Below, piece by piece: positions 17,247-31,602 of a stretch of DNA of 64,000 nucleotides (its first letter is position 1; each line of letters begins with the position of its first letter). The notes below the pieces were generated by a model. It made no database searches. It saw only the letters and a list, made by a program, of their open reading frames with translations, and was not told where the DNA came from. The position numbers and the translations under genes are program-made. The stretch is taken from contig NZ_JAPMLQ010000001.1 of assembly GCF_026410305.1 (NCBI RefSeq), positions 186,001-250,000 on the forward strand. The letters run 5' to 3'. The DNA comes from Sulfitobacter sp. F26204 (GTDB lineage: Bacteria > Pseudomonadota > Alphaproteobacteria > Rhodobacterales > Rhodobacteraceae).

Positions 17247-18158
17247 ATGTCGTTGAACAAGACCACCCTTGCGATCCTGTATCTGTTGATCGCAATTGTG
17301 TTGTTCGACGCAATGGGATTGCTGATCAAACACCTGTCCGCGGATTATTCCGCAGCGGAACTGTCTGCCTACCGCAATATTTTCGGGTTGGTTCCTGCCG
17401 GACTGGTCTTGTGGCGCTCTACTGACTGGCACAGAAAGGGCAGGATTCTAAAGTTGCGGCAATGGCGGCTGGCGCTTTTTCGCGGCGCGATCCTGACCTG
17501 CGCGCAACTGTCGTTCTACATGTCGCTGGGCCTGTTGAGTTTCGCGACCGCCTCGACCATCACCTATGCAAACGCCCTGTTTCTTGTTGCGCTTGCGGTG
17601 CCCTTGTTAGGCGAAAAAGTGGGGTTCATGCGGTGGTGCGCGGTGCTGATTGGTTTTGCCGGCGTCGTCCTGGTTGTCGGACCGGGGCGCGATACCTTTT
17701 CCAACGCGGCCTTGCTGCCGCTGTTTGCCGCTTTCTGCTATGCATTGGTCGGGGTGAGCGCCAGGATGATGGACGCAGATGTGCCGACAGCCTTGATCAA
17801 CCTTTATTCATCGATAATTGCCGCTATCGGGGCTTTTGTGCTGGTCCCGCTGTTGGGAGGGTTTTCCCCATTAGGATCCCCTGGCGATCTCATTTCGATT
17901 GCAGGCATGGGGGCATTTGGCGGCACAGCGGTCTTGTTGCTGATCACATCCTATCGAATGGCCGATCAAAGCGATTTGGCTCCTTTCAGCTATTTTGGTA
18001 TTCCAATCGCCTTTGTGCTGGGTTGGGTATTTTACGATGAAGCCCCTTGGTCAGAGCTGTTTCCCGGGGCGGCGTTGATCATATTCGGCGGATTGATGAT
18101 CATCTGGCGGGAGCGCCGGTTGCGACTGGATCACACCACTACCTCTTCCGAAATCTGA
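17247..18158 (+). CDS. EamA/DMT-superfamily transporter
   Basis: The 303-residue protein has about ten hydrophobic segments in two EamA repeats (MSLNKTTLAILYLLIAIVLF at the start; GFAGVVLVVGP closing the first repeat; GAALIIFGGLMIIWRERR closing the second). Members export or import small metabolites. The substrate cannot be read from the sequence. It starts divergently from the B12 riboswitch transcript, sharing the 159-base gap 17088-17246, and its last 28 bases overlap the end of pncB. Confidence 0.85.
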   Translation: MSLNKTTLAILYLLIAIVLFDAMGLLIKHLSADYSAAELSAYRNIFGLVPAGLVLWRSTDWHRKGRILKLRQWRLALFRGAILTCAQLSFYMSLGLLSFATASTITYANALFLVALAVPLLGEKVGFMRWCAVLIGFAGVVLVVGPGRDTFSNAALLPLFAAFCYALVGVSARMMDADVPTALINLYSSIIAAIGAFVLVPLLGGFSPLGSPGDLISIAGMGAFGGTAVLLLITSYRMADQSDLAPFSYFGIPIAFVLGWVFYDEAPWSELFPGAALIIFGGLMIIWRERRLRLDHTTTSSEI

Positions 18159-19423
18159 TCGCCGACACCAAAGACCCGCTTGTAGCGCGCAATCTCGGAG
18201 GCGGGGCCCATCGCCTTGTTGGGGTTGTCAGACAGTTTGACCGTCGGCGCGCCGTTGGCCTTGACCGCCTTGCACACCAAGGAGAACGGCGCGAGGGCAT
18301 CATCCGGTACCAGATTGCGGAAGTCGTTTGTAAGCAATGTCCCCCAACCGAACGAGACCTTGACCTTGTCCGAGAATTGGGCATGCAAGGTCTTGATCTT
18401 GTCGACGTCCAGTCCGTCGCTGAAGATGACACGTTTTTCAGAAGGATCTTCGCCCCGCGACTTCCACCAGTCGATGGCGATGTTAGCGGCTGTTGCAGGA
18501 TCGCCGCTGTCGACGCGAATACCTGTCCAGCCCGCCAGCCAGTCAGGCGCATTATCAAGAAACCCTTTCGTGCCATAAGTATCCGGCAGAATGATGCGCA
18601 GGTTGCCTTCATGTTCGTCGTGCCAATCCTGCAGCACATCATAAGGTGCCTGGGCCAGCGCGGCATCGTCGGGCGCCAGGGCGGCATAGACCATTGGCAG
18701 TTCATGGGCGTTGGTGCCTATCGCCTCGACTTCGCGGCTCATGGCGATCTTGCAATTAGAGGTGCCAGTGAAGGCTTCACCCAGACCACCACTCATCGCC
18801 TGGACGCACCAATCCTGCCATAAGTATGAATGCCGACGCCGGGTACCGAAGTCCGCAATCGACAGATCAGGAATTTCGCGCAATGTCTCTATCTTTTCCC
18901 AAACCCGGGTCATTCCACGGGCATAAAGAACCTGAAGTTCGAACCTTCCCATTGTGTCGAGCACTGCCCGGCCTCGCAGTTCCATCAGAATCGCCAGAGC
19001 CGGAATTTCCCACAACATGACTTCGTGCCATTTCCCCTCGAAAGTCAGTTCGTATTGGTCACCCTTGCGTTCAAGGTGATAGGGCGGCAGACGCAATCCT
19101 TCGAACCATTCCATAAAATCGGATCGGAACATCTGGCGCTTGCCGTAAAAAGTATTGCCGCGCAGCCAGGTGGATTCGCCACGCGACAGCGACAGGGAGC
19201 GCACGTGATCAAGTTGTTCGCGCAATTCGCCTTCGTCAATCAGGTTTGCCAGCGGAATATGCTTGGACCGGTTGATCAGGCTGAAGGTAACTTCTGTATT
19301 GCGTTTGTTGTGAAAGATCGACTGACACATCAACAGTTTATAGAAGTCAGTATCGATGAGCGACCGCACAATCGGGTCGATCTTCCATTTGTGGTTCCAG
19401 ACACGGGAGGCGATATCGACCAT
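18131..19423 (-). CDS. pncB: Nicotinate phosphoribosyltransferase PncB
   Basis: PncB converts nicotinate and PRPP to nicotinate mononucleotide for NAD salvage. The 430-residue protein has the N-terminal PIVRSLIDTDFYKLLM signature, FGTRRRHSYLWQ (the phosphoribosyl-binding FGTRR region) and GTSNCKIAM. The start at 19423 has AAGGA seven bases upstream; an in-frame ATG six codons earlier is possible. With pncA (20215-20808) on the same strand, it gives a two-step nicotinamide-to-NaMN route. Confidence 0.95.
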   Translation of the reverse strand: MVDIASRVWNHKWKIDPIVRSLIDTDFYKLLMCQSIFHNKRNTEVTFSLINRSKHIPLANLIDEGELREQLDHVRSLSLSRGESTWLRGNTFYGKRQMFRSDFMEWFEGLRLPPYHLERKGDQYELTFEGKWHEVMLWEIPALAILMELRGRAVLDTMGRFELQVLYARGMTRVWEKIETLREIPDLSIADFGTRRRHSYLWQDWCVQAMSGGLGEAFTGTSNCKIAMSREVEAIGTNAHELPMVYAALAPDDAALAQAPYDVLQDWHDEHEGNLRIILPDTYGTKGFLDNAPDWLAGWTGIRVDSGDPATAANIAIDWWKSRGEDPSEKRVIFSDGLDVDKIKTLHAQFSDKVKVSFGWGTLLTNDFRNLVPDDALAPFSLVCKAVKANGAPTVKLSDNPNKAMGPASEIARYKRVFGVGDQISEEVVV

Positions 19424-19554
19424 GAGGTGTTCCTTGTGCAATCATACCCTTGTTGCAAATGCGACATGGCAGGGGCAAGGAAGATTTCTGTTTTCGTGCC
19501 ACGGTTGCCAATTTCACCCAATCTCTTTTGGATGCTCCGAGAAGGGAGCAGCGC

Positions 19555-20199
19555 ATGACACCTGTAGAAATCCTGACATCTGTGGTCTGCGTTATGGCCT
19601 TTGTCGGTTATGTCGCCTGTTTGTCACATCTGCTCTGGTTGACCATCGCGGCAACTGCGGGTTTGGGCTTTTATTTGTCACGCTATGTACCGTTTACGCC
19701 AGAGTCATTGATCTATTGGGGCGGTGCCGCTGGTTTGCTGCTCGCTGCTTTGCTCTGCTTGTGGTTCTTACCCGCAAAAACCCCGCCAGCGGGCAAACCG
19801 CGTCGACAGACAAAGGAACCACAGGTCGTCATTGACGGAACCAATGTCATGTATTGGGACGGAGAAGCCGATCTGGGCACCCTGCGCGCGGTGGTGGACC
19901 TTATCAAGGCCAAAGGTTTGACGCCCTTTGTCTTTCTGGATGCATCATCAAGGCACCATCTTGGCGACACGTCACTGGATGAAAAAGGGTTTTCCAAGGC
20001 CCTCGGCTTGAGGCGCGACAGCGTGATGGTCTGCCCGGCACGCACCGAAGCGGATGCATTTATTCTAAAGTTTGCACGGGAAAAGAGTCTGCCGGTGGTT
20101 TCGAACGACCGGTTTGGAGATCGCGCACAACAGGCCAAGGGGCTGAAACTGATCAAGGGCGGTATCGCTGGAGGAAAGCCGATCCTGCATGGGATTTGA
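19555..20199 (+). CDS. Membrane-anchored NYN/PIN-like ribonuclease
   Basis: The 214-residue protein has two or three hydrophobic segments in residues 5-73, then a basic linker and a C-terminal Zc3h12a-type NYN domain (about 88-214). Acidic active-site candidates are Asp94 (VVIDGTN), Asp129, Glu165/Asp167 (ARTEADAFIL) and Asp185 (VVSNDRFGD), the usual four-acid pattern of a Mg-dependent RNase. The start follows GGGAG. It is transcribed against pncB and pncA and sits between them. Substrate RNAs are unknown. Confidence 0.8.
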   Translation: MTPVEILTSVVCVMAFVGYVACLSHLLWLTIAATAGLGFYLSRYVPFTPESLIYWGGAAGLLLAALLCLWFLPAKTPPAGKPRRQTKEPQVVIDGTNVMYWDGEADLGTLRAVVDLIKAKGLTPFVFLDASSRHHLGDTSLDEKGFSKALGLRRDSVMVCPARTEADAFILKFAREKSLPVVSNDRFGDRAQQAKGLKLIKGGIAGGKPILHGI

Positions 20200-20214
20200 C
20201 CCCTGGTGAGAAGC

Positions 20215-20808
20215 TCAGACCAACCGGACCCCGGCCCCTTGCAACTCATCTGTTGCCGCGGTGAGCGAGCCACCCATGTCGATAGCGCGGCACAGATCAC
20301 GATGCACGGTCACGTTAAAACCGAGCTTTGCAGCATCCACCGCTGAATAATGCACGCAAAAATCAAGCGCGAGGCCAACCATCGTCACGCCGGTGATACC
20401 GCGTGTGCGCAGGTAACCCTCGAGACCAGTAGGTGTTTCATGATCATTCTCAAAAAACGCGGAATAGCTGTCGATGGCGGGATTGTACCCTTTTCGGATG
20501 ATCAGATCAGCGCGGTCCTGATGCAACTCCGTGTGGAACTTTGCCCCCATGCTCCCCTGGATACAATGATCAGGCCACAGAACCTGTGGACCATAGGGCA
20601 TGTCGATCAAATCCATCGGGGCCTTGCCCTCATGCGACGAGGCAAAGGACGAATGGCCCGCCGGATGCCAGTCCTGGGTCAGGACAACGGCCTCAAAATC
20701 GTTCATCAGCGCATTGATGCCCTGAACAATGGTGTTGCCACCTGCAACGGCCAAGGCACCACCCGGGCAAAAGTCGTTCTGGAGATCGATCACAATTAGC
20801 GCCTGCAT
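20215..20808 (-). CDS. pncA: Nicotinamidase PncA
   Basis: PncA hydrolyses nicotinamide to nicotinate, feeding PncB. The 197 residues contain the catalytic triad Asp8 (VIDLQNDF), Lys106 (IRKG) and Cys151 (ALDFCV), and the metal ligands Asp46, His48 (QDWHPAGH) and His81 (WPDHC). Length is normal. It ends close to the convergent NYN nuclease gene and is divergent from trhO. Confidence 0.95.
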   Translation of the reverse strand: MQALIVIDLQNDFCPGGALAVAGGNTIVQGINALMNDFEAVVLTQDWHPAGHSSFASSHEGKAPMDLIDMPYGPQVLWPDHCIQGSMGAKFHTELHQDRADLIIRKGYNPAIDSYSAFFENDHETPTGLEGYLRTRGITGVTMVGLALDFCVHYSAVDAAKLGFNVTVHRDLCRAIDMGGSLTAATDELQGAGVRLV

Positions 20809-23048: not shown

Positions 23049-26000
23049 TCAGACGAGTTCTCCAAGAATTTGATCCAGGGTGGTAATGATCATCTCAGCG
23101 TCTTCAGCCTCGATGGTGAGGGGGGGACGGATCTTGAGAATATTGTCTTTCGGTCCCTCGCTTCCGATCAGGATGCGATGATCACGCATCCGGTTTTTGA
23201 CATAGGCACAAATCTCGGTCGCCTCGGCACCATCGGGTTTGATCAATTCCAGTCCAAGGAACAATCCCATACCCCGCACATCGCCGACACAATCGTATTT
23301 CACCTCAAGCGATTTCAGACCGGTCATGAGTTGTTCGCCAACAACGCGCGCATTTTCCTGCAAAGCTTCGTCATCCACAATATCCAGGACTTCGCCTCCG
23401 ATGCGGCACGACAATGTCGAACCCCCAAAGGTCGAGAAAAACTCGATTCCATTGTCAAAACTTTGAGCGACCTCTTTCGTTGTGACCAACACACCCAATG
23501 GATGCCCATTACCGATAGGTTTGCCCAGTACAACGATGTCGGGCGATACTTCCTGGCCCTCAAAACCGAAATAGTGGGTCCCCAAACGGCCCAGACCTGT
23601 TTGCACTTCGTCGGCGATACAGATGCCGCCCGCCGCACGGACTTTTTGATAAACCGCCGCCAGATAGCCTTTGGGTGGGATGATTTGTCCGCCAACAGAG
23701 GGGAATGTCTCGGCGATGAAACCTGCAACGCCATGCCCCTTGCGGTTCAGCGCCGCAATGGCAGGGTCGACCAGATCGGCAAATTTCTGTGCACGATGAG
23801 GATCGTCGCGGCCGAATGACCCGCGGTAGTCATCAGCGATTTCTACCAATTCAACCCAATCTGATTGCCCTACCCCACCCGGTTTGTTGAATTTATAGGC
23901 AGAAATATCGACCGCACCAGTCGTGTTGCCGTGGTAGCCGTGATCAGGCGTGATCATTCCTTTGGCCCCCGTGTGGGCGCGAGCGAGGCGCAGGGCAAGT
24001 TCGTTGGCTTCTGACCCTGAGTTCACAAAATAACAGACCTGCAAGTGGTCTGGCATTTTCGCCAGAACCTTATCCGCAAAGGCGGTTTGCGCAGGATGCA
24101 AATAACGGGTGTTGGAATTGATCCGCCTGAGCTGATCCGCTGCCACCTTTTGGATACGGGGATGAGCGTGCCCTACATGCGGCACGTTATTGTAAGCATC
24201 CAGATATGGACGTCCCCATTCATCGAACAGATGATGTTTCCAGCCTCGTACCAGCATCACGGGATCATCATAGGTCAGGCTGAGGTTGCCGCCGAAATGT
24301 GCTTCGCGTCCCTCCCTGATACGTGATTTTTCCGTGGGGAAAAAGCGTACCTTTTCATCAGGCAGATTCAACAATGCCGCAGGGTTGGGACATATCGCTC
24401 GCCACAGGTACATCTCGTCCGGGTCTCCGACACCGGGCCAATCCGCTTCGATCCCCTCAGTGGTAAGCGCAAGTTGGAAATGTACATGCGGTGACCAACC
24501 ACCGTTCATTGACGGATCACCAAGGCGGCAGAACTCTTCACCTTTGTCGATCACTTGGCCCACTTCAAGGCGTTCCAGAAACTCGGGATCGAGATGGCCA
24601 TACAGCGTAAAAAACGGATCACCCTCTGGCGTCTGATGACGCAGGATGATCACCCCGCCATAGTCCAGGTGACCTGCACGGTATTCCGCAATAAAAACTT
24701 CGCCGCGCAATGGCGCATACATGGGTGTTCCAGCAGTCGTGAACACATCAACCGCCAGATGCACCGTGCGCCTGTCGCTGGCTTTCCAGGGGCCTTTGCG
24801 AAAGGCGGGTTCGGCATAGATCAGCCGGGGTTCGTGATAGTAGCCCAGCCAGATGCTGCCCTGATCTTCGAATTCCTCGCCCACTTTCGCGGCTTCTTCC
24901 AGGGGCATGTGGAAAGGGTTTTGCGGCCAGGTTGATTCTTCGACAGAAAGCGACCCTAAAGGGGCATCAGAGATATCGCTGCCCATCAGAGGTGCAAAAT
25001 TTCCGCGCTCCTGTTCAAGCCAGGCCCGAACACGGTCAGCCCTTTCGACCACCGGCAGGCCGCAGGCGGCACGCAGGCGCGCCGACAATAAACCACCGTG
25101 AACCCGATCCCCTTCCAGGAACCGCCAGGCGGGGGCCTGTGAAATGGTTACATAGGGATCATCGGGATTTTCGATTGCCATCAATGTGGAATTCACCACA
25201 CTCACCGCGAGGCGGGTGCGAAGCAGCGGCCAGAGCATATCGATTTCAGCGGCCACAAGCGGGTTGGCGTCGTGATAGCCCGCGACCAGCGCGGAAAGGG
25301 CCGCTTCGGGGTTGGCATGATCCAGCACAATATAGGCTGCTGCAATTGCCAGATCACAAATTCTCGGTGCCGCACAAATATCGCCAAGGTCGATCAGGCC
25401 AGACACGCGGCGCGGCGCGCCCAACACTCCGGTGACCAGAATGTTATAGTCGTTGGCGTCATTGTGGATTGCCTGTTTCGGCAGGGCCGCCAATTCCGGT
25501 TTCAAATTGGCAAACTGCGCATGGATGTCTTCGATAATCTGACGTCGCACGGGATCGGCTATGCAGTCCGTATTGTCGCGGATCCAATCTGCGCGCATCA
25601 GATCCCATTTGAATTCACGATCAAGCCTGTCATGCTGGAAATCAGCCAAGGCGAGAGCGGTGCCGCCCAATACCTGACCGATCTCGTGAATGAGGGCATC
25701 ACTTTTGGGTGCGGTATAGGCATAACACCGGCCTGGCAGTTGACCCAACAACCAGACAAGGCGTTGCACGCCGTTCTCATCATCTACTGTCAGCAGGGCG
25801 TCTTTGTTGGAGGTGCGAATGATGACAGGACAGGGTAAATGCGGCTGCCTTGCAGTAATATGCTCAAATGCCTTGACCTGTATATCGACCAGCCAGGATT
25901 CACATTCCGCGCGCATGACCTTTAGAACATAGCCCTTTCCATCATGCGCTTTCGCGAGGAAATTCAGATCATATTCGCCATCCAATTGGGTGAGATTTGC

Positions 26001-26066
26001 GAAGATTCCCCATTTTTCCTTGAGAACAGTTTGCCAGTGCTGAAGCCTATTTTCCATTTTAGTCAT
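23049..26066 (-). CDS. Three-domain fusion: APH-type kinase, M23-like domain, class III aminotransferase/phospho-lyase
   Basis: The 1005-residue protein has no signal peptide. Residues ~30-260 form an aminoglycoside-phosphotransferase-like kinase ([10 protein letters not shown], 201-210; IDLGD, 225-229). Residues ~405-560 resemble LytM/M23 peptidases and keep the metal ligands His436/Asp440 (HLAVD), His491 (YGHLD) and His527/His529 (PHVHF). Residues ~590-1005 are a class III PLP enzyme with Asp819 and PLP-lysine Lys849 ([14 protein letters not shown]). The C-terminal part resembles ETNPPL/PHYKPL phospho-lyases, so the kinase may phosphorylate an amino alcohol that the lyase then cleaves. The middle domain has no clear role. 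It follows a PuuB-like oxidase in the same operon. Confidence 0.88.
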
Positions 26067-26202: not shown

Positions 26203-27531
26203 CTAACGATCCTTTAACGCAAACCCGGCATAGGCGATGGGCATCAAGGCGCGGCGCCAGCGGCCAAGTTCGAATTTCGCCAAAGGCCGCTGGACGGCCT
26301 GAGGGTAAATTCTTTCTGGTGTCTTTTCCTGGACCAGATCAGCCAGCAAGGCACCGCAATAACTTGCCATCGCGACCCCGTTTCCATGGTAACACAGGCT
26401 GGCGAACATATCCGGTGTATCGGGTATCTCTGCGACAAATGGCATGCGATTGCGGGCGATGCAAACCATGCCAGACCAGGCATTTGGCGTTTCGACATGC
26501 TGCCAGGCCGGAAACATCGCTTCGAAATCCGCCCGCGCGCGTCTGATTGCGCGCGCCTCTGATCCCGGAGAGGCCATCAAACCTCCACGAACCCCGAACA
26601 ACATGCGTTTGTCAGGCATCAAGCGGAAGTAATGTAATAGATGCCGTGTGTCATAAGAGGCCTGCATGCTGTTCCACCCTTGCTGGTCCAGCTCCGACGA
26701 CGACATCGGACGGGTGACAATGACACTGGATTGTGTAGGCATGTAGCGCCCCGAAAGCCAGTCAGGCAAATCTTCGCTGGAATATCCGTTGGTTGCAATG
26801 ACGACCTTGCTTGCACGCACCGTCCCTTGCGGTGTTTTCAGCGCAAAGGTCTCCCTGTTCCGGGCAATGCTTGTGACTGGTGTCTCATGGAAAATCCTCG
26901 CACCCGCTGTTTCCGCAGCAGTGGCCAGACCGGTGATATATTTGCGCGGGTTCAATCCAAAACCAATCGGGACCGTCACCGCCCCTTCAAAACCGGCCTT
27001 CATGCCTTCGGCGGCAAGATCCGCCCTGGTCGTGAGCCTCGCGACGAGACCATAACTGTCCGCATAATAATCGACTTCGTCTCGCAGTTCCTCGAAATCG
27101 CGGGCCCGGTGGGCCAATTTGGTTTCTCCGTCTGAATGCCGATCTACCTCTATACCGAAACGGTCAATCAGCGCTTCGACCAGGCGAATTGCTGCCAGTT
27201 CGGTCTGCCGCCAGTCGTCCCGGCCTTGTCTGCCGAAGGATTTTTCCAGAGCCGCATTGTCCAGCATGCCGCCGCCCAGGCAGCAAAAGCCACCATTGCG
27301 CCCCGAGGCACCCCAACCGACATAGCGGTTTTCCAGGACCATGACGGACAAGCCCGCCTCGGCCAGATGCAGCGCGGTGGAAATGCCGGTGAACCCCCCA
27401 CCCACAATCGCGACATCACAGGTGGCATCCTCGGTCAGTTTGTCACGATCGGGAATGGGACAGGTCTGATCCCACCAGCATTGCGCACGGGGCGCATCAG
27501 AATAGGCATAGTCGGGATAGATATGGCGCAT
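26203..27531 (-). CDS. FAD-dependent amine oxidase, PuuB/DAO family
   Basis: The 442-residue protein has an N-terminal FAD-binding GGGFTG motif (residues 44-49, CDVAIVGGGFTGIST), the DAO-type GWGASGRNGGFC segment (about 73-84) and a late WSGMVCIARNRMPFV. This fits gamma-glutamylputrescine oxidase-like enzymes, which oxidise the amine and release H2O2. Its start overlaps the permease stop as TGATG (one shared base), so it is translated with the importer, which supports a polyamine or related amine as substrate. puuA is not in the window. Confidence 0.85.
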   Translation of the reverse strand: MRHIYPDYAYSDAPRAQCWWDQTCPIPDRDKLTEDATCDVAIVGGGFTGISTALHLAEAGLSVMVLENRYVGWGASGRNGGFCCLGGGMLDNAALEKSFGRQGRDDWRQTELAAIRLVEALIDRFGIEVDRHSDGETKLAHRARDFEELRDEVDYYADSYGLVARLTTRADLAAEGMKAGFEGAVTVPIGFGLNPRKYITGLATAAETAGARIFHETPVTSIARNRETFALKTPQGTVRASKVVIATNGYSSEDLPDWLSGRYMPTQSSVIVTRPMSSSELDQQGWNSMQASYDTRHLLHYFRLMPDKRMLFGVRGGLMASPGSEARAIRRARADFEAMFPAWQHVETPNAWSGMVCIARNRMPFVAEIPDTPDMFASLCYHGNGVAMASYCGALLADLVQEKTPERIYPQAVQRPLAKFELGRWRRALMPIAYAGFALKDR

Positions 27532-28352
27532 CAGTTGGTCGCACGTTCAGCGGCCTGTGCTTCCTGTTGGGCGCGCACCGCATTGCGTTTGGTGACCAGC
27601 GACGCCGTTACGACACCGACCGTCACGATCAGGATCATGATTGTAGACAGGGCATTTATCTCGGGCGAAACTCCCAGCCGGACCGCTGAAAAAATCTTGA
27701 TCGGCAAGGTTGTCGCAGCGGGGCCGGCAGTAAAGGATGCGATGACGAGATCGTCCAGACTGAGCGTGAAGGCCAGAAGCCAGCCAGAGATCACCGCGGG
27801 CGCGATGATGGGCAATGTGACAAGGCGGAATGCCTCCCACGGGGTAGAGCCAAGATCGAGCGCCGCTTCTTCCAGTGAACGGTCAAAGGTCATGAGGCGG
27901 GAAGACACCACAACCGATACATAGCACATTGAAAACGTCGTATGGGCAAGCACGATGGTTAGCACGCCACGATCCAGACCAATGCTGATGAACAGCAACA
28001 ACAGCGACAGACCGGTGATGACTTCGGGCATGACCAGCGGAGCATAGATCATGCCTGAAAATAATGTGCGCCCCATAAATCGGCCGCCACGTACCAGGAC
28101 ATAAGCGGCCATTGTGCCCAGGACTGTGGCGAAACAGGAGGACAGCACTGCGACCTTGAGCGTAATCCAGGCCGCGTCCAGAAAGGCTTCGTTCTGGAAC
28201 AATGTGCCGTACCATTTTGTCGAAAATCCAGCCCAGACCGTGACCAGTTTTGATGAATTGAAGCTGTAGAAAATGAGCACCAGCATCGGCAGATAAAGGA
28301 AGGCAAACCCCAGCGTCAGCGAGGTCACGTTGAACCAAGACAAACGTTTCAT
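27531..28352 (-). CDS. potI: ABC transporter permease, PotC/PotI type
   Basis: The 273-residue inner-membrane protein has six hydrophobic segments and the ABC permease EAA loop (EEAALDLGSTPWEAFRLVTLPIIAPAV, shown as two parts EEAALDLGSTPWEAF and VTLPIIAPAV). It pairs with the upstream permease, which it overlaps by 4 bases. Specificity for putrescine/spermidine is inferred from family and neighbours. Confidence 0.88.
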   Translation of the reverse strand: MKRLSWFNVTSLTLGFAFLYLPMLVLIFYSFNSSKLVTVWAGFSTKWYGTLFQNEAFLDAAWITLKVAVLSSCFATVLGTMAAYVLVRGGRFMGRTLFSGMIYAPLVMPEVITGLSLLLLFISIGLDRGVLTIVLAHTTFSMCYVSVVVSSRLMTFDRSLEEAALDLGSTPWEAFRLVTLPIIAPAVISGWLLAFTLSLDDLVIASFTAGPAATTLPIKIFSAVRLGVSPEINALSTIMILIVTVGVVTASLVTKRNAVRAQQEAQAAERATN

Positions 28353-29227
28353 TGTTCTGCCTCCTGCTGTTTTTGCTGGTTGCGTTGGAACAATACGATG
28401 GGAATGATCAGCAACAACAAAAGGATCACTGCCACGGCCGAGGCGACAGGCCAGTCGCGGTTGTTAAAGAACTCTTCCCAAAGCACCTTGCCGATCATCA
28501 GCGTGCCTGATCCACCCAGCAGGGAGGGGATCACGAATTCACCCAATGCGGGAATAAAGACAAGGAACGAACCCGCGACGATGCCGTTTTTAGAGAGCGG
28601 GATCGTGACCAGCCAAAACGCCTGTGTGCGCGTACATCCGAGATCCTGCGCCGCCTCATCCAGAGAAGGATCCAACCGGTCAAGCGCCGCGTAAATCGGC
28701 AGGATCATGAAAGGAAGGTAGGTGTAAACAATGCCGATATAAACCGCGAGGTTGGTGTTGAGGATCACCAAGGGTTCATTGATAAGGCCCAGCCAGAACA
28801 GCAACTGGTTAAGCAGACCTTCATTGCTGAGAATGCCCATCCAGGCATAGACCCGGATCAGGAAGGAGGTCCAGAACGGCAGGATCACCAGCATCATCAA
28901 GGTCGCACGCCATTCATCGGGGGCCTTGGCCATGCCATATGCAATAGGATAGCCGACCAATAGCGTCAGGAAGGTAGAGACCAGCGCAATGCGAAAGGAA
29001 CTGAAGTATGCCTTCCAGTAAAGATCATCCTCGGTAAGAAAGACGAAATTCTCGAAGTCCAGTTCGGCAAACATGGCACCGACCCCGTCCTTGATCGTCG
29101 GTGTATAAGGCGGAATGGCGAGAGCAGCATCTGAAAGGGATATTTTCAGAACAATCAGGAACGGGGCAAAAAACAATACCAGCAGCCAGAGGTAGGGCGC
29201 TGCGATGAGTAGCGTACGACGCGTCAT
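28349..29227 (-). CDS. potH: ABC transporter permease, PotB/PotH type
   Basis: The 292-residue protein has six membrane segments and the EAA loop DEAAQDLGCTRTQAF with VTIPLSKNGI. It also has the PotB/PotH-like N-terminal APYLWLLVLFFAPFLIVLKIS. It is preceded by an 89-base gap holding a repeat element, the only sizeable gap inside the importer operon besides the one after the binding-protein gene. Confidence 0.88.
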   Translation of the reverse strand: MTRRTLLIAAPYLWLLVLFFAPFLIVLKISLSDAALAIPPYTPTIKDGVGAMFAELDFENFVFLTEDDLYWKAYFSSFRIALVSTFLTLLVGYPIAYGMAKAPDEWRATLMMLVILPFWTSFLIRVYAWMGILSNEGLLNQLLFWLGLINEPLVILNTNLAVYIGIVYTYLPFMILPIYAALDRLDPSLDEAAQDLGCTRTQAFWLVTIPLSKNGIVAGSFLVFIPALGEFVIPSLLGGSGTLMIGKVLWEEFFNNRDWPVASAVAVILLLLLIIPIVLFQRNQQKQQEAEQ

Positions 29228-29251
29228 TCAGGTTCCGCCTGTTGTATCTGT

Positions 29252-29291
29252 GGAACCGGGGCCAGCCCCGGACCCCGCGGTATTTAGGGCC
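29252..29291 (-). repeat. Intergenic hairpin repeat, second copy
   Basis: On the minus strand this reads GGCCCTAAATACCGCGGGGT, then CCGGGGC-TGG-CCCCGG. The copy at 381-417 on the plus strand reads GGCCTTAAATACCGCGGGGT, then TTGGGGC-AGA-GCCCCAA. The 20-base lead differs at one position and the hairpin arms differ by compensating changes. This copy lies inside an operon, between the ATPase and permease genes. Confidence 0.6.
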
Positions 29292-29316
29292 AAAAAGAAA
29301 GAAGAAGGTGTCTGTT

Positions 29317-30444
29317 TCATTGTTCCAACATCACGCCAGCAGTTGCATTCCATGAAATCCACACCGGATCTTCCCAAGTGATGTCACGCCGCGCAATGCG
29401 GCGTGTATTGGCGGTCTGTGCCTTGATCACCTGACCGCCGGGCAGTTCGACATGGTAGGTGGACAGGTTCCCTAGATAGGCAATGTCCAGAACCTTGCCC
29501 TGCATTGCGTTTTCCGCATCTTCTGGCTTTTCACTGGAGATACGGATTTTTTCGGGGCGGATGGCAAGATGGGCCTTTTGCCCTTCGGCAAAGCTGGTCT
29601 GCGAGGTGGCAATGATGGGGGCCTGGCTGTCCACCCAGTTCAGCTTGTATTTCTCGGTTCCAGAAGCGGATGCATGCCCTTCGATGATGTTAACATCACC
29701 AATGAAGTCAGCCACATAGACAGAGTTAGGATATTCATAGATCGACGCAGGTGTCGCCACCTGAATGACCCGACCTTCGTCCATCACGGCGACCCGGCTT
29801 GCGACTGTCATTGCTTCTTCCTGGTCATGGGTCACGATAACAAAAGTGGTTCCGGTTGTTTCCTGAATGTCCATCAATTCAAATTGGGTGTCCTGGCGCA
29901 GCTTCTTGTCCAATGCGCCCAGCGGTTCATCCAGCAGGAGAAGTTTCGGTGCCTTGGCCAGGGACCGCGCCAGGGCGACACGCTGGCGTTGGCCGCCTGA
30001 AATCTGATGCGGTTTGCGCTGGGCGAATTTTTCCAGCCGAACAAGCTTGAGCATTTCCTCAACCCGCGCGTCGATCTCGGGCTTGGCTTTCTTGTCGCGT
30101 TTCAAGCCAAAAGCAATATTCTCCCAGACGCTCAGATGTGGAAACAGGGCGTAGGACTGGAACATCATGTTCACGGCGCGCTCGTTCGGCGGCACCTGGC
30201 CGATGTCCTGACCCGCAAGTTCGATCACGCCTTCCGTAACCGTTTCAAATCCTGCCAGCATCCGCATCATTGTCGTTTTACCGCAGCCGGATGGCCCGAG
30301 CAGGGCAAAGAATTCCTGTGCATAGATGTCGAGAGTCAGATCATCGATCGCGACAAATTCACCGAATCTCTTGGTGACATTGCGAAAACGGATCAACGGC
30401 TTTTCGTTCGGGTCTTCCCATGGGGCAAAGACGGTTTGGCTCAC
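29317..30444 (-). CDS. potG: ABC transporter ATPase, PotA/PotG type
   Basis: The 375 residues have Walker A GPSGCGKTT (50-58), the ABC signature SGGQRQR, Walker B LLLLDEPLGALD, and a C-terminal TOBE-like regulatory domain (LAIRPEKIRIS). This is the energising subunit of the polyamine-type importer. It lies 72 bases after the binding-protein gene, with a hairpin between. Confidence 0.92.
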   Translation of the reverse strand: MSQTVFAPWEDPNEKPLIRFRNVTKRFGEFVAIDDLTLDIYAQEFFALLGPSGCGKTTMMRMLAGFETVTEGVIELAGQDIGQVPPNERAVNMMFQSYALFPHLSVWENIAFGLKRDKKAKPEIDARVEEMLKLVRLEKFAQRKPHQISGGQRQRVALARSLAKAPKLLLLDEPLGALDKKLRQDTQFELMDIQETTGTTFVIVTHDQEEAMTVASRVAVMDEGRVIQVATPASIYEYPNSVYVADFIGDVNIIEGHASASGTEKYKLNWVDSQAPIIATSQTSFAEGQKAHLAIRPEKIRISSEKPEDAENAMQGKVLDIAYLGNLSTYHVELPGGQVIKAQTANTRRIARRDITWEDPVWISWNATAGVMLEQ

Positions 30445-30481
30445 GCGGAAATCCTTGTATTGACGCGGTAACAGTGGGGGT

Positions 30482-30509
30482 AGGGCGCGCCTTGGGTAGA
30501 GCGCGCCCT
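30482..30509 (-). terminator. Intercistronic hairpin between binding-protein and ATPase genes
   Basis: AGGGCGCGC (30482-30490) and GCGCGCCCT (30501-30509) form a perfect 9-bp stem with a 10-base loop, just after the binding-protein stop codon. No T run follows on the minus strand. Such hairpins often protect the upstream message and lower expression of the ATPase and permeases relative to the binding protein. Confidence 0.55.
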
Positions 30510-30516
30510 GATGTGG

Positions 30517-31602
30517 TCAGGTGCCGGACTTGATCTTGGTCCACATACGCGTCACGAACCGCTGCACCTTGGGGCTGTAAGGTGAAGTAGTATAGAGGTT
30601 TTCCAGAGTTGCGGCATCAGGATAGATCGCAGTATCACCGATCACGTCTTCTGCAAGAAACTCCTGGGAGGCCTCGTTACCATTGGCATAGTAGACATAG
30701 TTCGATGCTGCCGCCATGTTCTGAGCATCCATGATGAAGTTCAAAAACTTATGGGCACCATCGGGGTTTGGCGCGTCAACCGGAATCGCCATGTTGTCGA
30801 ACCACATCAGTGCGCCTTCTTTCGGTGCATAATATTCGATTTCGACACCGTTCTCAGCCTCTGCCGCGCGGTCACGGGCCTGCAGGATGTCCCCTGACCA
30901 GCCAAAGGCCACACAGATGTCGCCGTTTGCCAATGCGTTGATATATTCTGAACTGTGGAATTTTTGAACAAAGGGTGCGACGGCTGTCAGCACCGGCTCT
31001 GTTTTGGCGATCACATCAGTATCCTGGCTGTCCGGGTCTTCGCCGAGATAAGCCAGTGTCGCAGGAATGATTTCAACCGGGGCATCAAGGAAATGTACGC
31101 CACATTCCTGCAGTTTTTCCATGTTGGCCGGATCAAGGATCAGTGCCAGCGAATCAACCGGGGCATCTTCGCCCAGCGCCTCTTTTACCTTGCCGATGTT
31201 CACACCGATGCCGGTCGTACCCCACATATAGTTGATCGCATATGCTGCTTTGGGGTCATATTTTTTCAAACGTTCGGAAATCGTCCCCCACAAGTTTTCC
31301 ATGTTGGGCAGTTTGGATGTATCCAGCTTCTGAAATGCGCCTGCGGTGATCTGGCGCTGCAGGAATGTGCCAGATGGCACCACTACGTCATATCCGGAAC
31401 CACCGGCAAGCAGCTTGGTCTCAAGTACTTCGTTACTGTCAAAGACATCATAGATCAGGTCAATGCCGGTTTCTGTCTCGAATTTTTCCAGCAGGCTTTC
31501 GTCAATATAGTCGGACCAGTTATAGACGCGGACCTCTTCGGCGGATGCGGCACCGCCCAGCATTGCAGCCACAGCAACGCTGCCTAGGATAGAATATTTC
31601 AT
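30517..31602 (-). CDS. potF: Periplasmic polyamine-binding protein, PotD/PotF type
   Basis: The 361-residue protein has a signal peptide (MKYSILGSVAVAAMLGGAASA) followed by EEVRVYNWSDYIDESLL, the start of mature PotD/PotF proteins, and later YDVVVPSG and AINYMWGTTGIGVN. It captures polyamine in the periplasm. It is the first gene of the leftward operon. Exact ligand (putrescine, spermidine or a related amine) cannot be decided by eye. Confidence 0.9.
   Translation of the reverse strand: MKYSILGSVAVAAMLGGAASAEEVRVYNWSDYIDESLLEKFETETGIDLIYDVFDSNEVLETKLLAGGSGYDVVVPSGTFLQRQITAGAFQKLDTSKLPNMENLWGTISERLKKYDPKAAYAINYMWGTTGIGVNIGKVKEALGEDAPVDSLALILDPANMEKLQECGVHFLDAPVEIIPATLAYLGEDPDSQDTDVIAKTEPVLTAVAPFVQKFHSSEYINALANGDICVAFGWSGDILQARDRAAEAENGVEIEYYAPKEGALMWFDNMAIPVDAPNPDGAHKFLNFIMDAQNMAAASNYVYYANGNEASQEFLAEDVIGDTAIYPDAATLENLYTTSPYSPKVQRFVTRMWTKIKSGT

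What the first reader, a model, noticed from the sequence alone, without database searches (positions are those of the whole stretch)
23049..26066. Kinase, M23-like metalloprotein and PLP lyase joined in one 1005-residue protein
The kinase loop ([10 protein letters not shown]), the M23 ligands (HLAVD, YGHLD, PHVHF) and the PLP lysine are all kept. Human HYKK with PHYKPL, or ethanolamine kinase with ETNPPL, do kinase-then-lyase chemistry as separate proteins, so this could be a one-chain version for an amino alcohol. The metal domain without any export signal is unexplained and may be a new cytosolic use of the LytM fold. Such fusions likely exist in related genomes, but I know of no assigned function.
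Basis: partly seen in the sequence, partly recalled or inferred. Interest (0 to 1): 0.78.

Follow-up and report, generated by a model that had tools for sequence, protein, structure and literature searches.

The report
Kinase–metalloprotein–PLP lyase fusion protein
A single bacterial protein most likely phosphorylates a small amino alcohol and then splits off its phosphate and amino groups, and between those two enzymes it carries a cell-wall-peptidase-type metal domain whose purpose is unexplained.

Summary
One intact 1005-residue ORF (23049-26066, minus strand) carries an APH-type kinase, an M23/LytM domain and a class-III PLP domain, each with its catalytic residues. It is a full-length member of PRK06148, named 'hypothetical protein' by NCBI. 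The genome has a second copy.

Kinase then phospholyase is well supported. The PLP part is nearest to human ethanolamine-phosphate phospho-lyase (44% identity) and a bacterial phospholyase. Elsewhere the same kinase and lyase are neighbouring genes, or once a two-domain fusion without M23. That pairing is not new (2012 paper, title seen).

The M23 part is the open question. Its five ligand/catalytic residues are intact in 121 of 127 family rows. On a quick lyase tree its presence needs one change. It occurs without the kinase (3 proteins) and alone (1). The metal site has decayed in two lineages that kept a barrel. So the barrel probably has a structural role, with metal chemistry on top in most members. 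The polyamine-transporter operon in the window is not conserved in relatives, so the substrate stays unassigned.

The parts
23049..26066 (-). Whole ORF, 1005 aa: kinase - M23 - PLP phospholyase (PRK06148 family)
   Evidence: NF004799 1540.5 bits, cut-off 1128, residues 3-1003
25260..25982 (-). APH-type kinase domain, residues 29-269
   Evidence: 70.3 bits
25380..25466 (-). Kinase catalytic segment 201-229: H201, D203, N208, D226, D229 (roles recalled)
   Evidence: intact in 125 of 130 rows; the other 5 are 3 kinase-less members and 2 rows that I judge frame artefacts; invariant in 31 kinases including split ones
24816..24833 (-). E-x-R-x-x-Y motif (412-417) just before the M23 core
   Evidence: ERY in 121 of 130 rows; also in the stand-alone relative L126
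24465..24764 (-). M23/LytM domain, residues 435-534
   Evidence: 44.9 bits (cut-off 28.7); Foldseek of the predicted domain
24747..24761 (-). HLAVD, M23 ligands H436 and D440
24594..24596 (-). H491 of YGHLD
24480..24488 (-). H527-V-H529 of PHVHF
23064..24254 (-). Class-III PLP domain of phospholyase type, residues 605-1001
23607..23612 (-). D819-E820, Asp that holds the PLP ring nitrogen (role recalled)
   Evidence: 130 of 130 rows
23520..23522 (-). K849, PLP Schiff-base lysine (role recalled)
   Evidence: 130 of 130 rows
26203..27531 (-). FAD-dependent oxidoreductase (DAO family) upstream, same strand; local context, not conserved
27531..31602 (-). Four-gene polyamine-type ABC transporter, same strand (substrate-binding protein and ATPase resemble PotF and PotG in NCBIfam; the two permeases named by eye); local context, not conserved

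Best explanation
It is a cytosolic one-chain kinase and phospholyase. The N-terminal APH domain phosphorylates the hydroxyl of an amino alcohol or hydroxy-amino acid with ATP. The C-terminal PLP domain then eliminates phosphate and ammonia and leaves an aldehyde for catabolism. The M23 barrel between them probably entered this lineage once. It has a structural or substrate-handing role, because the barrel survives loss of the metal site, and in most members, this one included, it also keeps a zinc-type hydrolase site. My leading guess for that site is that it cuts an amide-bound (peptidyl or acyl) form of the substrate before or between the other two steps. Shown: domains, intact residues, phospholyase kinship, gene pairing, clustering of the M domain on the tree and repeated decay of the metal site. 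Inferred: the kinase-to-lyase order and chemistry (about 0.75). Guess: metal-dependent hydrolysis (about 0.3) and substrate (hydroxylysine-like cationic amino acid about 0.4, ethanolamine about 0.3, other 0.3).
For: PLP part: 401 bits to human ETNPPL 6tor and 302 to phospholyase 5g4i; in the full-length search these two head the list and the next chain, dialkylglycine decarboxylase, scores 164.5. Foldseek top hit 6tor, 44% identity. Lyases of this type in the fetched loci (257 bits or more) are separated by a gap from other class-III enzymes (148 or less). Kinase next to lyase: in 6 of 7 plasmid regions without M23 that I fetched, directly adjacent, and in the seventh one gene apart on the other strand; in 8 unnamed loci picked because both parts had matched (in three of them the kinase stop is followed at once by the lyase ATG); and 5 adjacent plus 1 fused (786 aa) of 30 further lyase loci. 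Transporters beside split pairs fit amino substrates: Lys/Arg/Orn type, ethanolamine permease. All catalytic residues kept. M23: 1 change on the lyase tree; 5 residues intact in 121 of 127 rows. No EutB in this genome.
Against: No activity is shown for any family member here. In the 30-locus sample, 24 lyase loci had no kinase similar enough to be seen (E<=1e-8 against this kinase), so the lyase often has none nearby. No neighbour is conserved widely enough to fix the substrate. ETNPPL and 5g4i are the only two chains over one search's limit, so closeness to ETNPPL does not choose between ethanolamine and hydroxylysine. Against hydrolysis by M23: six members keep the barrel without the full ligand set. 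The tree is a quick one without bootstrap, and the fork at the base of the lyases is unresolved. The AlphaFold model of the lyase part is poor in places (pLDDT about 30-40 at 591-660).
Confidence: 0.62

Rival explanations
1. The M23 barrel is purely structural: it spaces or docks the kinase and the lyase and holds at most a structural metal, as the degenerate LytM domains of EnvC or DipM do outside the cytosol (their role recalled).
For: The barrel is kept in a clade of five PRK06149-type members whose metal residues are gone (hhalign 97.0%, E 1.2e-10) and, separately, in L260 (Pfam M23 31.7 bits over the cut-off of 28.7; H491, H527 and H529 replaced). L260 lies elsewhere on the lyase tree, as L193.
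Against: All five catalytic-type residues are intact in 121 of 127 rows, some only about 37% identical to this one. A lone M23 relative and three kinase-less ones also keep them, where no spacing between kinase and lyase is needed.
Confidence: 0.4
2. The PLP domain is an ordinary aminotransferase for polyamine catabolism, in line with the Pot-like transporter and FAD-oxidoreductase neighbours, and the kinase is a vestige or regulates.
For: Same-strand run with polyamine-type transporter and FAD oxidoreductase. Among 21 loci with a kinase-lyase pair without M23, 4 hold an FADox homologue, 6 a PotH and 4 a PotI homologue in the fetched stretch; one is annotated with a PotD/PotF-family protein.
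Against: Kinase residues are intact in every row that has the domain. The PLP part is much closer to phospholyases than to putrescine aminotransferase (about 145 bits). FADox, PotF, PotH and PotI homologues (E<=1e-20) lie in 0 of 80 near relatives within 10 kb; in 38 more diverse loci FADox, PotH and PotI are in 1 each and PotF in none.
Confidence: 0.1
3. The kinase inactivates an aminoglycoside or similar antibiotic and the protein is a defence or resistance factor.
For: The domain is APH type, and the best-scoring solved structures for the kinase profile include an aminoglycoside phosphotransferase and amicoumacin kinase.
Against: Homoserine kinase scores nearly as high (60.9 against 65.1 bits). 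Fusion or pairing with a lyase and amino-acid transporters argues for catabolism.
Confidence: 0.03

Closest known systems
PRK06148 (NCBIfam NF004799, 'hypothetical protein')
   Same: Full-length, all three domains, 1540 bits over a cut-off of 1128
   Different: Nothing structural; the family has no assigned function
PRK06149 (NF004800, 'aminotransferase')
   Same: Kinase - barrel - lyase order; barrel homologous by profile comparison
   Different: M23 residues lost in the five distinct members examined (I call them PRK06149-type by length and by falling under the PRK06148 cut-off, not by a scan with that model); this protein scores 686 against a cut-off of 973
Ethanolamine-phosphate phospho-lyase (human ETNPPL, PDB 6tor) and Arthrobacter phospholyase A1RDF1 (5g4i)
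   Same: PLP domain, 401 and 302 bits; PLP lysine and aspartate
   Different: Separate proteins without kinase or M23
Hydroxylysine kinase HYKK with the phospholyase PHYKPL (human)
   Same: APH-type kinase feeding a phospholyase (recalled; the title of the 2012 paper seen in a reference list)
   Different: Two separate proteins; not compared by sequence here
Peptidase M23 / LytM family (lysostaphin, ShyA, LytM)
   Same: Fold and five ligand/catalytic residues
   Different: Flanked by metabolic enzymes, no sign of export

Membership tests
PRK06148 (NF004799) | Score over curated cut-off along the full length | tested here: met
   1540.5 bits, residues 3-1003, model 8-1010 of 1015
PLP phospholyase (ETNPPL/PHYKPL/A1RDF1 group) | Closer to phospholyases than to aminotransferases | tested here: met
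   gap of 257 against 148 bits
PLP phospholyase (ETNPPL/PHYKPL/A1RDF1 group) | PLP lysine and ring-nitrogen aspartate | tested here: met
   D819, K849 in 130 of 130 rows
PLP phospholyase (ETNPPL/PHYKPL/A1RDF1 group) | Elimination of phosphate and ammonia | not testable with these tools
   needs an enzyme assay
APH kinase (PF01636) | Catalytic HxD...N and metal-binding Asp | tested here: met
   H201, D203, N208, D226, D229
Hydroxylysine kinase (HYKK) | Orthology to HYKK or activity on 5-hydroxylysine | not tested
   no HYKK sequence was used; one search lists aminoglycoside phosphotransferase, homoserine kinase and amicoumacin kinase as best-scoring solved structures
Peptidase M23 (PF01551) | HxxxD and HxH residues plus family score | tested here: met
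   44.9 bits over 28.7; residues
Peptidase M23 (PF01551) | Metal-dependent peptidase activity | not testable with these tools
   needs metal analysis and assay
Peptidase M23 (PF01551) | Export signal (usual, not strictly defining) | tested here: not met
   hydropathy peak 0.56 against 1.67-2.44 in six other M23 proteins of the genome; a simple hydropathy test

The most novel reading that the evidence does not exclude
A three-step enzyme on one chain: a cytosolic M23 site first frees an amino alcohol or hydroxy-amino acid from an amide conjugate, the kinase phosphorylates it and the lyase deaminates it. This would be a catalytic use of the LytM fold in the cytosol, away from cell-wall peptides, that was lost at least twice while the barrel was kept.
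Probability: 0.28. Interest if true: 0.75.

Novelty: new variant of a known kind. Interest (0 to 1): 0.5.

Why it matters
The family is frequent in Rhodobacterales (80 loci kept of 533 confirmed candidates; 21 of 149 genomes of the window's family) and also present in rhizobia, yet it is named only 'aminotransferase class III-fold' protein or 'hypothetical protein'. A test would assign a route for nitrogen recovery from amino alcohols in genomes without EutB (this one). It would also tell whether a cell-wall-peptidase fold does chemistry in the cytosol. The natural series intact / decayed / absent metal site makes that testable by comparison. The lyase part of the Sinorhizobium member scores 495 bits to human ETNPPL, against 312 to the bacterial phospholyase, so this family may also bear on where the animal enzymes came from.

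Tried and rejected
Polyamine-operon idea: FADox, PotF, PotH, PotI and GntR homologues (E<=1e-20) lie in 0 of 80 near relatives within 10 kb, and PotG-like ATPases, at most 41% identical, in 14 of 80 (an earlier layout, resolved 78 of the 80). In 38 diverse loci FADox, PotH and PotI are in 1 each. Rejected as a family-wide clue. Against that rejection: the 21 loci with a kinase-lyase pair without M23 hold FADox in 4 (three of them look like one lineage), PotH in 6, PotI in 4 and GntR in 4.

Conserved neighbour for all members: none found. The commonest clusters (by eye a dehydrogenase-like gene in 37 of 80 and a phosphatase-like one in 34 of 80) I read as genus-level synteny from the locus list, not from a test.

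A hypergeometric figure for the invariance of the five M23 residues was discarded: the 16 rows behind it had been chosen for keeping those residues. One search replaces it without that choice.

Antibiotic-resistance kinase: homoserine kinase scores about as high.

Stand-alone M23 relatives as a common form: only one (L126) among 18 matches in 14 of 385 genomes.

Structure: the domain model is middling (pLDDT 68) and the full model has a poor lyase part. I had no coordinates, so no metal-site geometry was measured. A terminator/promoter scan of the run gave nothing above its shuffles worth using.

Literature: the nine searches, judged from their listings only, showed no paper on this architecture. 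PRK06148 is named in one paper (PMC8249566; listing seen only). Veiga-da-Cunha 2012 is not held. For the A1RDF1 structure paper I looked up a DOI given from memory, which is not held.

Dropped rows: three rows had no M domain (L207, a real kinase-lyase fusion; L213 and L137, which I judged frame artefacts of my ORF caller), leaving 127; the window protein is in that set twice. For the tree, 193 lyase hits were thinned to 119 by similarity and length; 11 of 16 outgroup rows were then dropped, leaving 108, and L106 and L213 were relabelled as plain lyases and L107 as PRK06149-type by hand.

Full report
What is there. The window holds one intact ORF at 23049-26066 on the minus strand, 1005 aa. 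Pfam gives APH 29-269, Peptidase_M23 435-534 and Aminotran_3 605-1001, all over cut-off. NCBIfam gives one full-length family over its cut-off, PRK06148, 1540.5 bits against 1128, named 'hypothetical protein'. A second full-length copy, 62.9% identical over aligned positions, lies on another contig of the same genome.

Relatives. In a sample of 299 genomes of the phylum, 8 exceed the family cut-off, all from the window's own class. In 149 genomes of its family, 21 have a full-length member (19 over the cut-off plus 2 below it, at 1120 and 933 bits), and 13 of these 21 also have a separate lyase match at E<=1e-100, two of the 13 with a stop codon inside the match. So the fusion does not simply replace the single lyase. 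Plasmid records show it in Sinorhizobium, Ensifer, Shinella, Phyllobacterium and others at about 37-40% identity.

Kinase and lyase. The PLP part scores 401 bits to human ETNPPL and 302 to the Arthrobacter phospholyase. In the full-length search these two head the list, and the next chain, a dialkylglycine decarboxylase, has 164.5. Foldseek of the full model puts 6tor first, 44% identity. Among the class-III proteins found in the fetched loci there is a gap between 257 and 148 bits. The same kinase and lyase appear as neighbouring genes. Of 7 plasmid regions without M23 that I fetched, 6 have them directly adjacent and in the seventh an ethanolamine permease lies between and the kinase is on the other strand (two of the seven had been chosen with a phosphotransferase already listed under the match). 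All 8 unnamed loci picked because both parts had matched show them side by side, in three of them with the lyase ATG directly after the kinase stop. In 30 further lyase loci picked by lyase score, 5 have an adjacent kinase and 1 is a direct fusion of 786 aa, while 24 show none at E<=1e-8. Two split pairs have telling transporters: a lysine/arginine/ornithine type in a Klebsiella plasmid and an ethanolamine permease in Chimaeribacter. The kinase residues H201, D203, N208, D226 and D229 are invariant in 31 diverse kinases. Their roles, and that of D819, are recalled from the families. I take kinase then phospholyase as the core function, by inference.

The M23 domain. Its five residues (H436, D440, H491, H527, H529) are intact in 121 of the 127 rows that have the domain (the window protein is counted twice). 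In 28 rows under 45% identical to the window protein they are kept in 79-93% of rows against a median of 21% for the columns of residues 405-535. The six exceptions are five PRK06149-type proteins and L260. Profile comparison shows that the PRK06149-type middle domain is homologous (97.0%, E 1.2e-10, 136 columns), and it ends in the same W..LCP.PA.LL segment. L260 still passes the Pfam M23 cut-off (31.7 against 28.7 bits) but has other residues at H491, H527 and H529; its first histidine is aligned by one program, with spacing to the aspartate one residue too long by eye. On a quick maximum-likelihood tree of 108 lyase domains, presence of the M domain needs one change (support of the branch to the M-less lyases 90% SH-aLRT; no bootstrap; the fork at the base is unresolved). 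The kinase-less members form one clade of 3 and the PRK06149 type one clade of 5, while L260 (as L193) sits in another clade. The metal site therefore decayed at least twice while a barrel was kept. A lone 298-aa relative, L126, keeps all five residues. Foldseek of the predicted domain gives 33 matches at E<=0.001, by title M23/LytM-domain proteins or phage particle proteins.

Location. The two fusion proteins have N-terminal hydropathy peaks of 0.56 and 0.69, while the six other M23 proteins of the genome have 1.67-2.44 (one of these ORFs, in L001, runs to the end of its stretch). Over 124 long family rows the median is 0.86 and the maximum 1.58, close to the lowest of the six. This is a simple hydropathy test, not a signal-peptide predictor.

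Context. In the window the gene follows, on the same strand, a four-gene polyamine-type ABC transporter and an FAD oxidoreductase. This is local: FADox, PotF, PotH, PotI and GntR homologues lie in 0 of 80 near relatives within 10 kb. In 38 more diverse loci FADox, PotH and PotI appear in 1 each. In 21 loci with a kinase-lyase pair without M23, FADox appears in 4, PotH in 6 and PotI in 4, and Agrobacterium fabrum has a PotD/PotF-family protein near its pair, so uptake systems of that type are not excluded for the wider group. The own second copy has, next to it, what look from their sequence starts like a peptide-type transporter and dehydrogenase genes (read by eye). One relative, L251, lies in a run with a protein over the cut-off of PRK07324 (an aminotransferase model; GntC is its second hit) and with EutB-, DoeB-, HisN-, ornithine-cyclodeaminase- and GlnQ-like proteins that stay below their models' cut-offs. 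L128 has beside it a protein like gamma-glutamylputrescine synthetase (254.9 bits, cut-off 650). The contexts agree on amino compounds and no further.

How it most likely works. ATP phosphorylates the hydroxyl, then PLP chemistry removes phosphate and ammonia. The M23 barrel is probably a once-acquired insert that has a structural role, and in most members a probable hydrolase site. I put metal-dependent hydrolysis at about 0.3, a purely structural role at about 0.4, and leave the rest open.

What is known. The kinase/phospholyase pairing is anticipated: the title of the 2012 paper (hydroxylysine kinase and ammoniophospholyases acting on 5-phosphohydroxylysine and phosphoethanolamine) is reference 76 of PMC12138971, and the order of references places it at that paper's passage on fusions of two uncharacterised partners (passages and reference list seen; the marks themselves are blank in the held text). 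The three-domain family is catalogued without function. The single entry and double decay of the M23 metal site are, as far as the listings can tell, not described.

Noticed in passing
L149 8935-11961 (Sinorhizobium meliloti 1021 pSymB): The lyase part scores 495 bits to human ETNPPL and 312 to the bacterial phospholyase 5g4i, while a Klebsiella split lyase prefers 5g4i (397 against 325) and a Chimaeribacter one scores 355 and 332. The animal enzyme may be nearer to the M23-bearing bacterial clade.
   Followed up: partly
   Followed up: partly
L127, L224, L226: M23-lyase proteins of 692-745 aa without the kinase, one clade; all three genomes (G008, G540, G612) also hold a full-length member.
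   Followed up: partly
L251 4604-17778: Family member inside a run of amino-acid-transporter, ornithine-cyclodeaminase-like, PRK07324/GntC-like, EutB/DoeB-like and HisN-like genes; possible hydroxy- or guanidino-amino-acid catabolism.
   Followed up: partly
L139 4961-7688: Beside a split kinase-lyase pair, an ORF that looks by eye like an M20 peptidase starts just after the lyase, with an FAD oxidoreductase further on; a separate peptidase next to the pair would fit an amide-bound substrate.
   Followed up: no
window 18131-20808: A protein that looks like nicotinate phosphoribosyltransferase (by eye) near an isochorismatase-family hydrolase: possible NAD salvage pair.
   Followed up: no
G000 C11 and C26: Two full-length copies 62.9% identical and no EutB in the genome.
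   Followed up: partly
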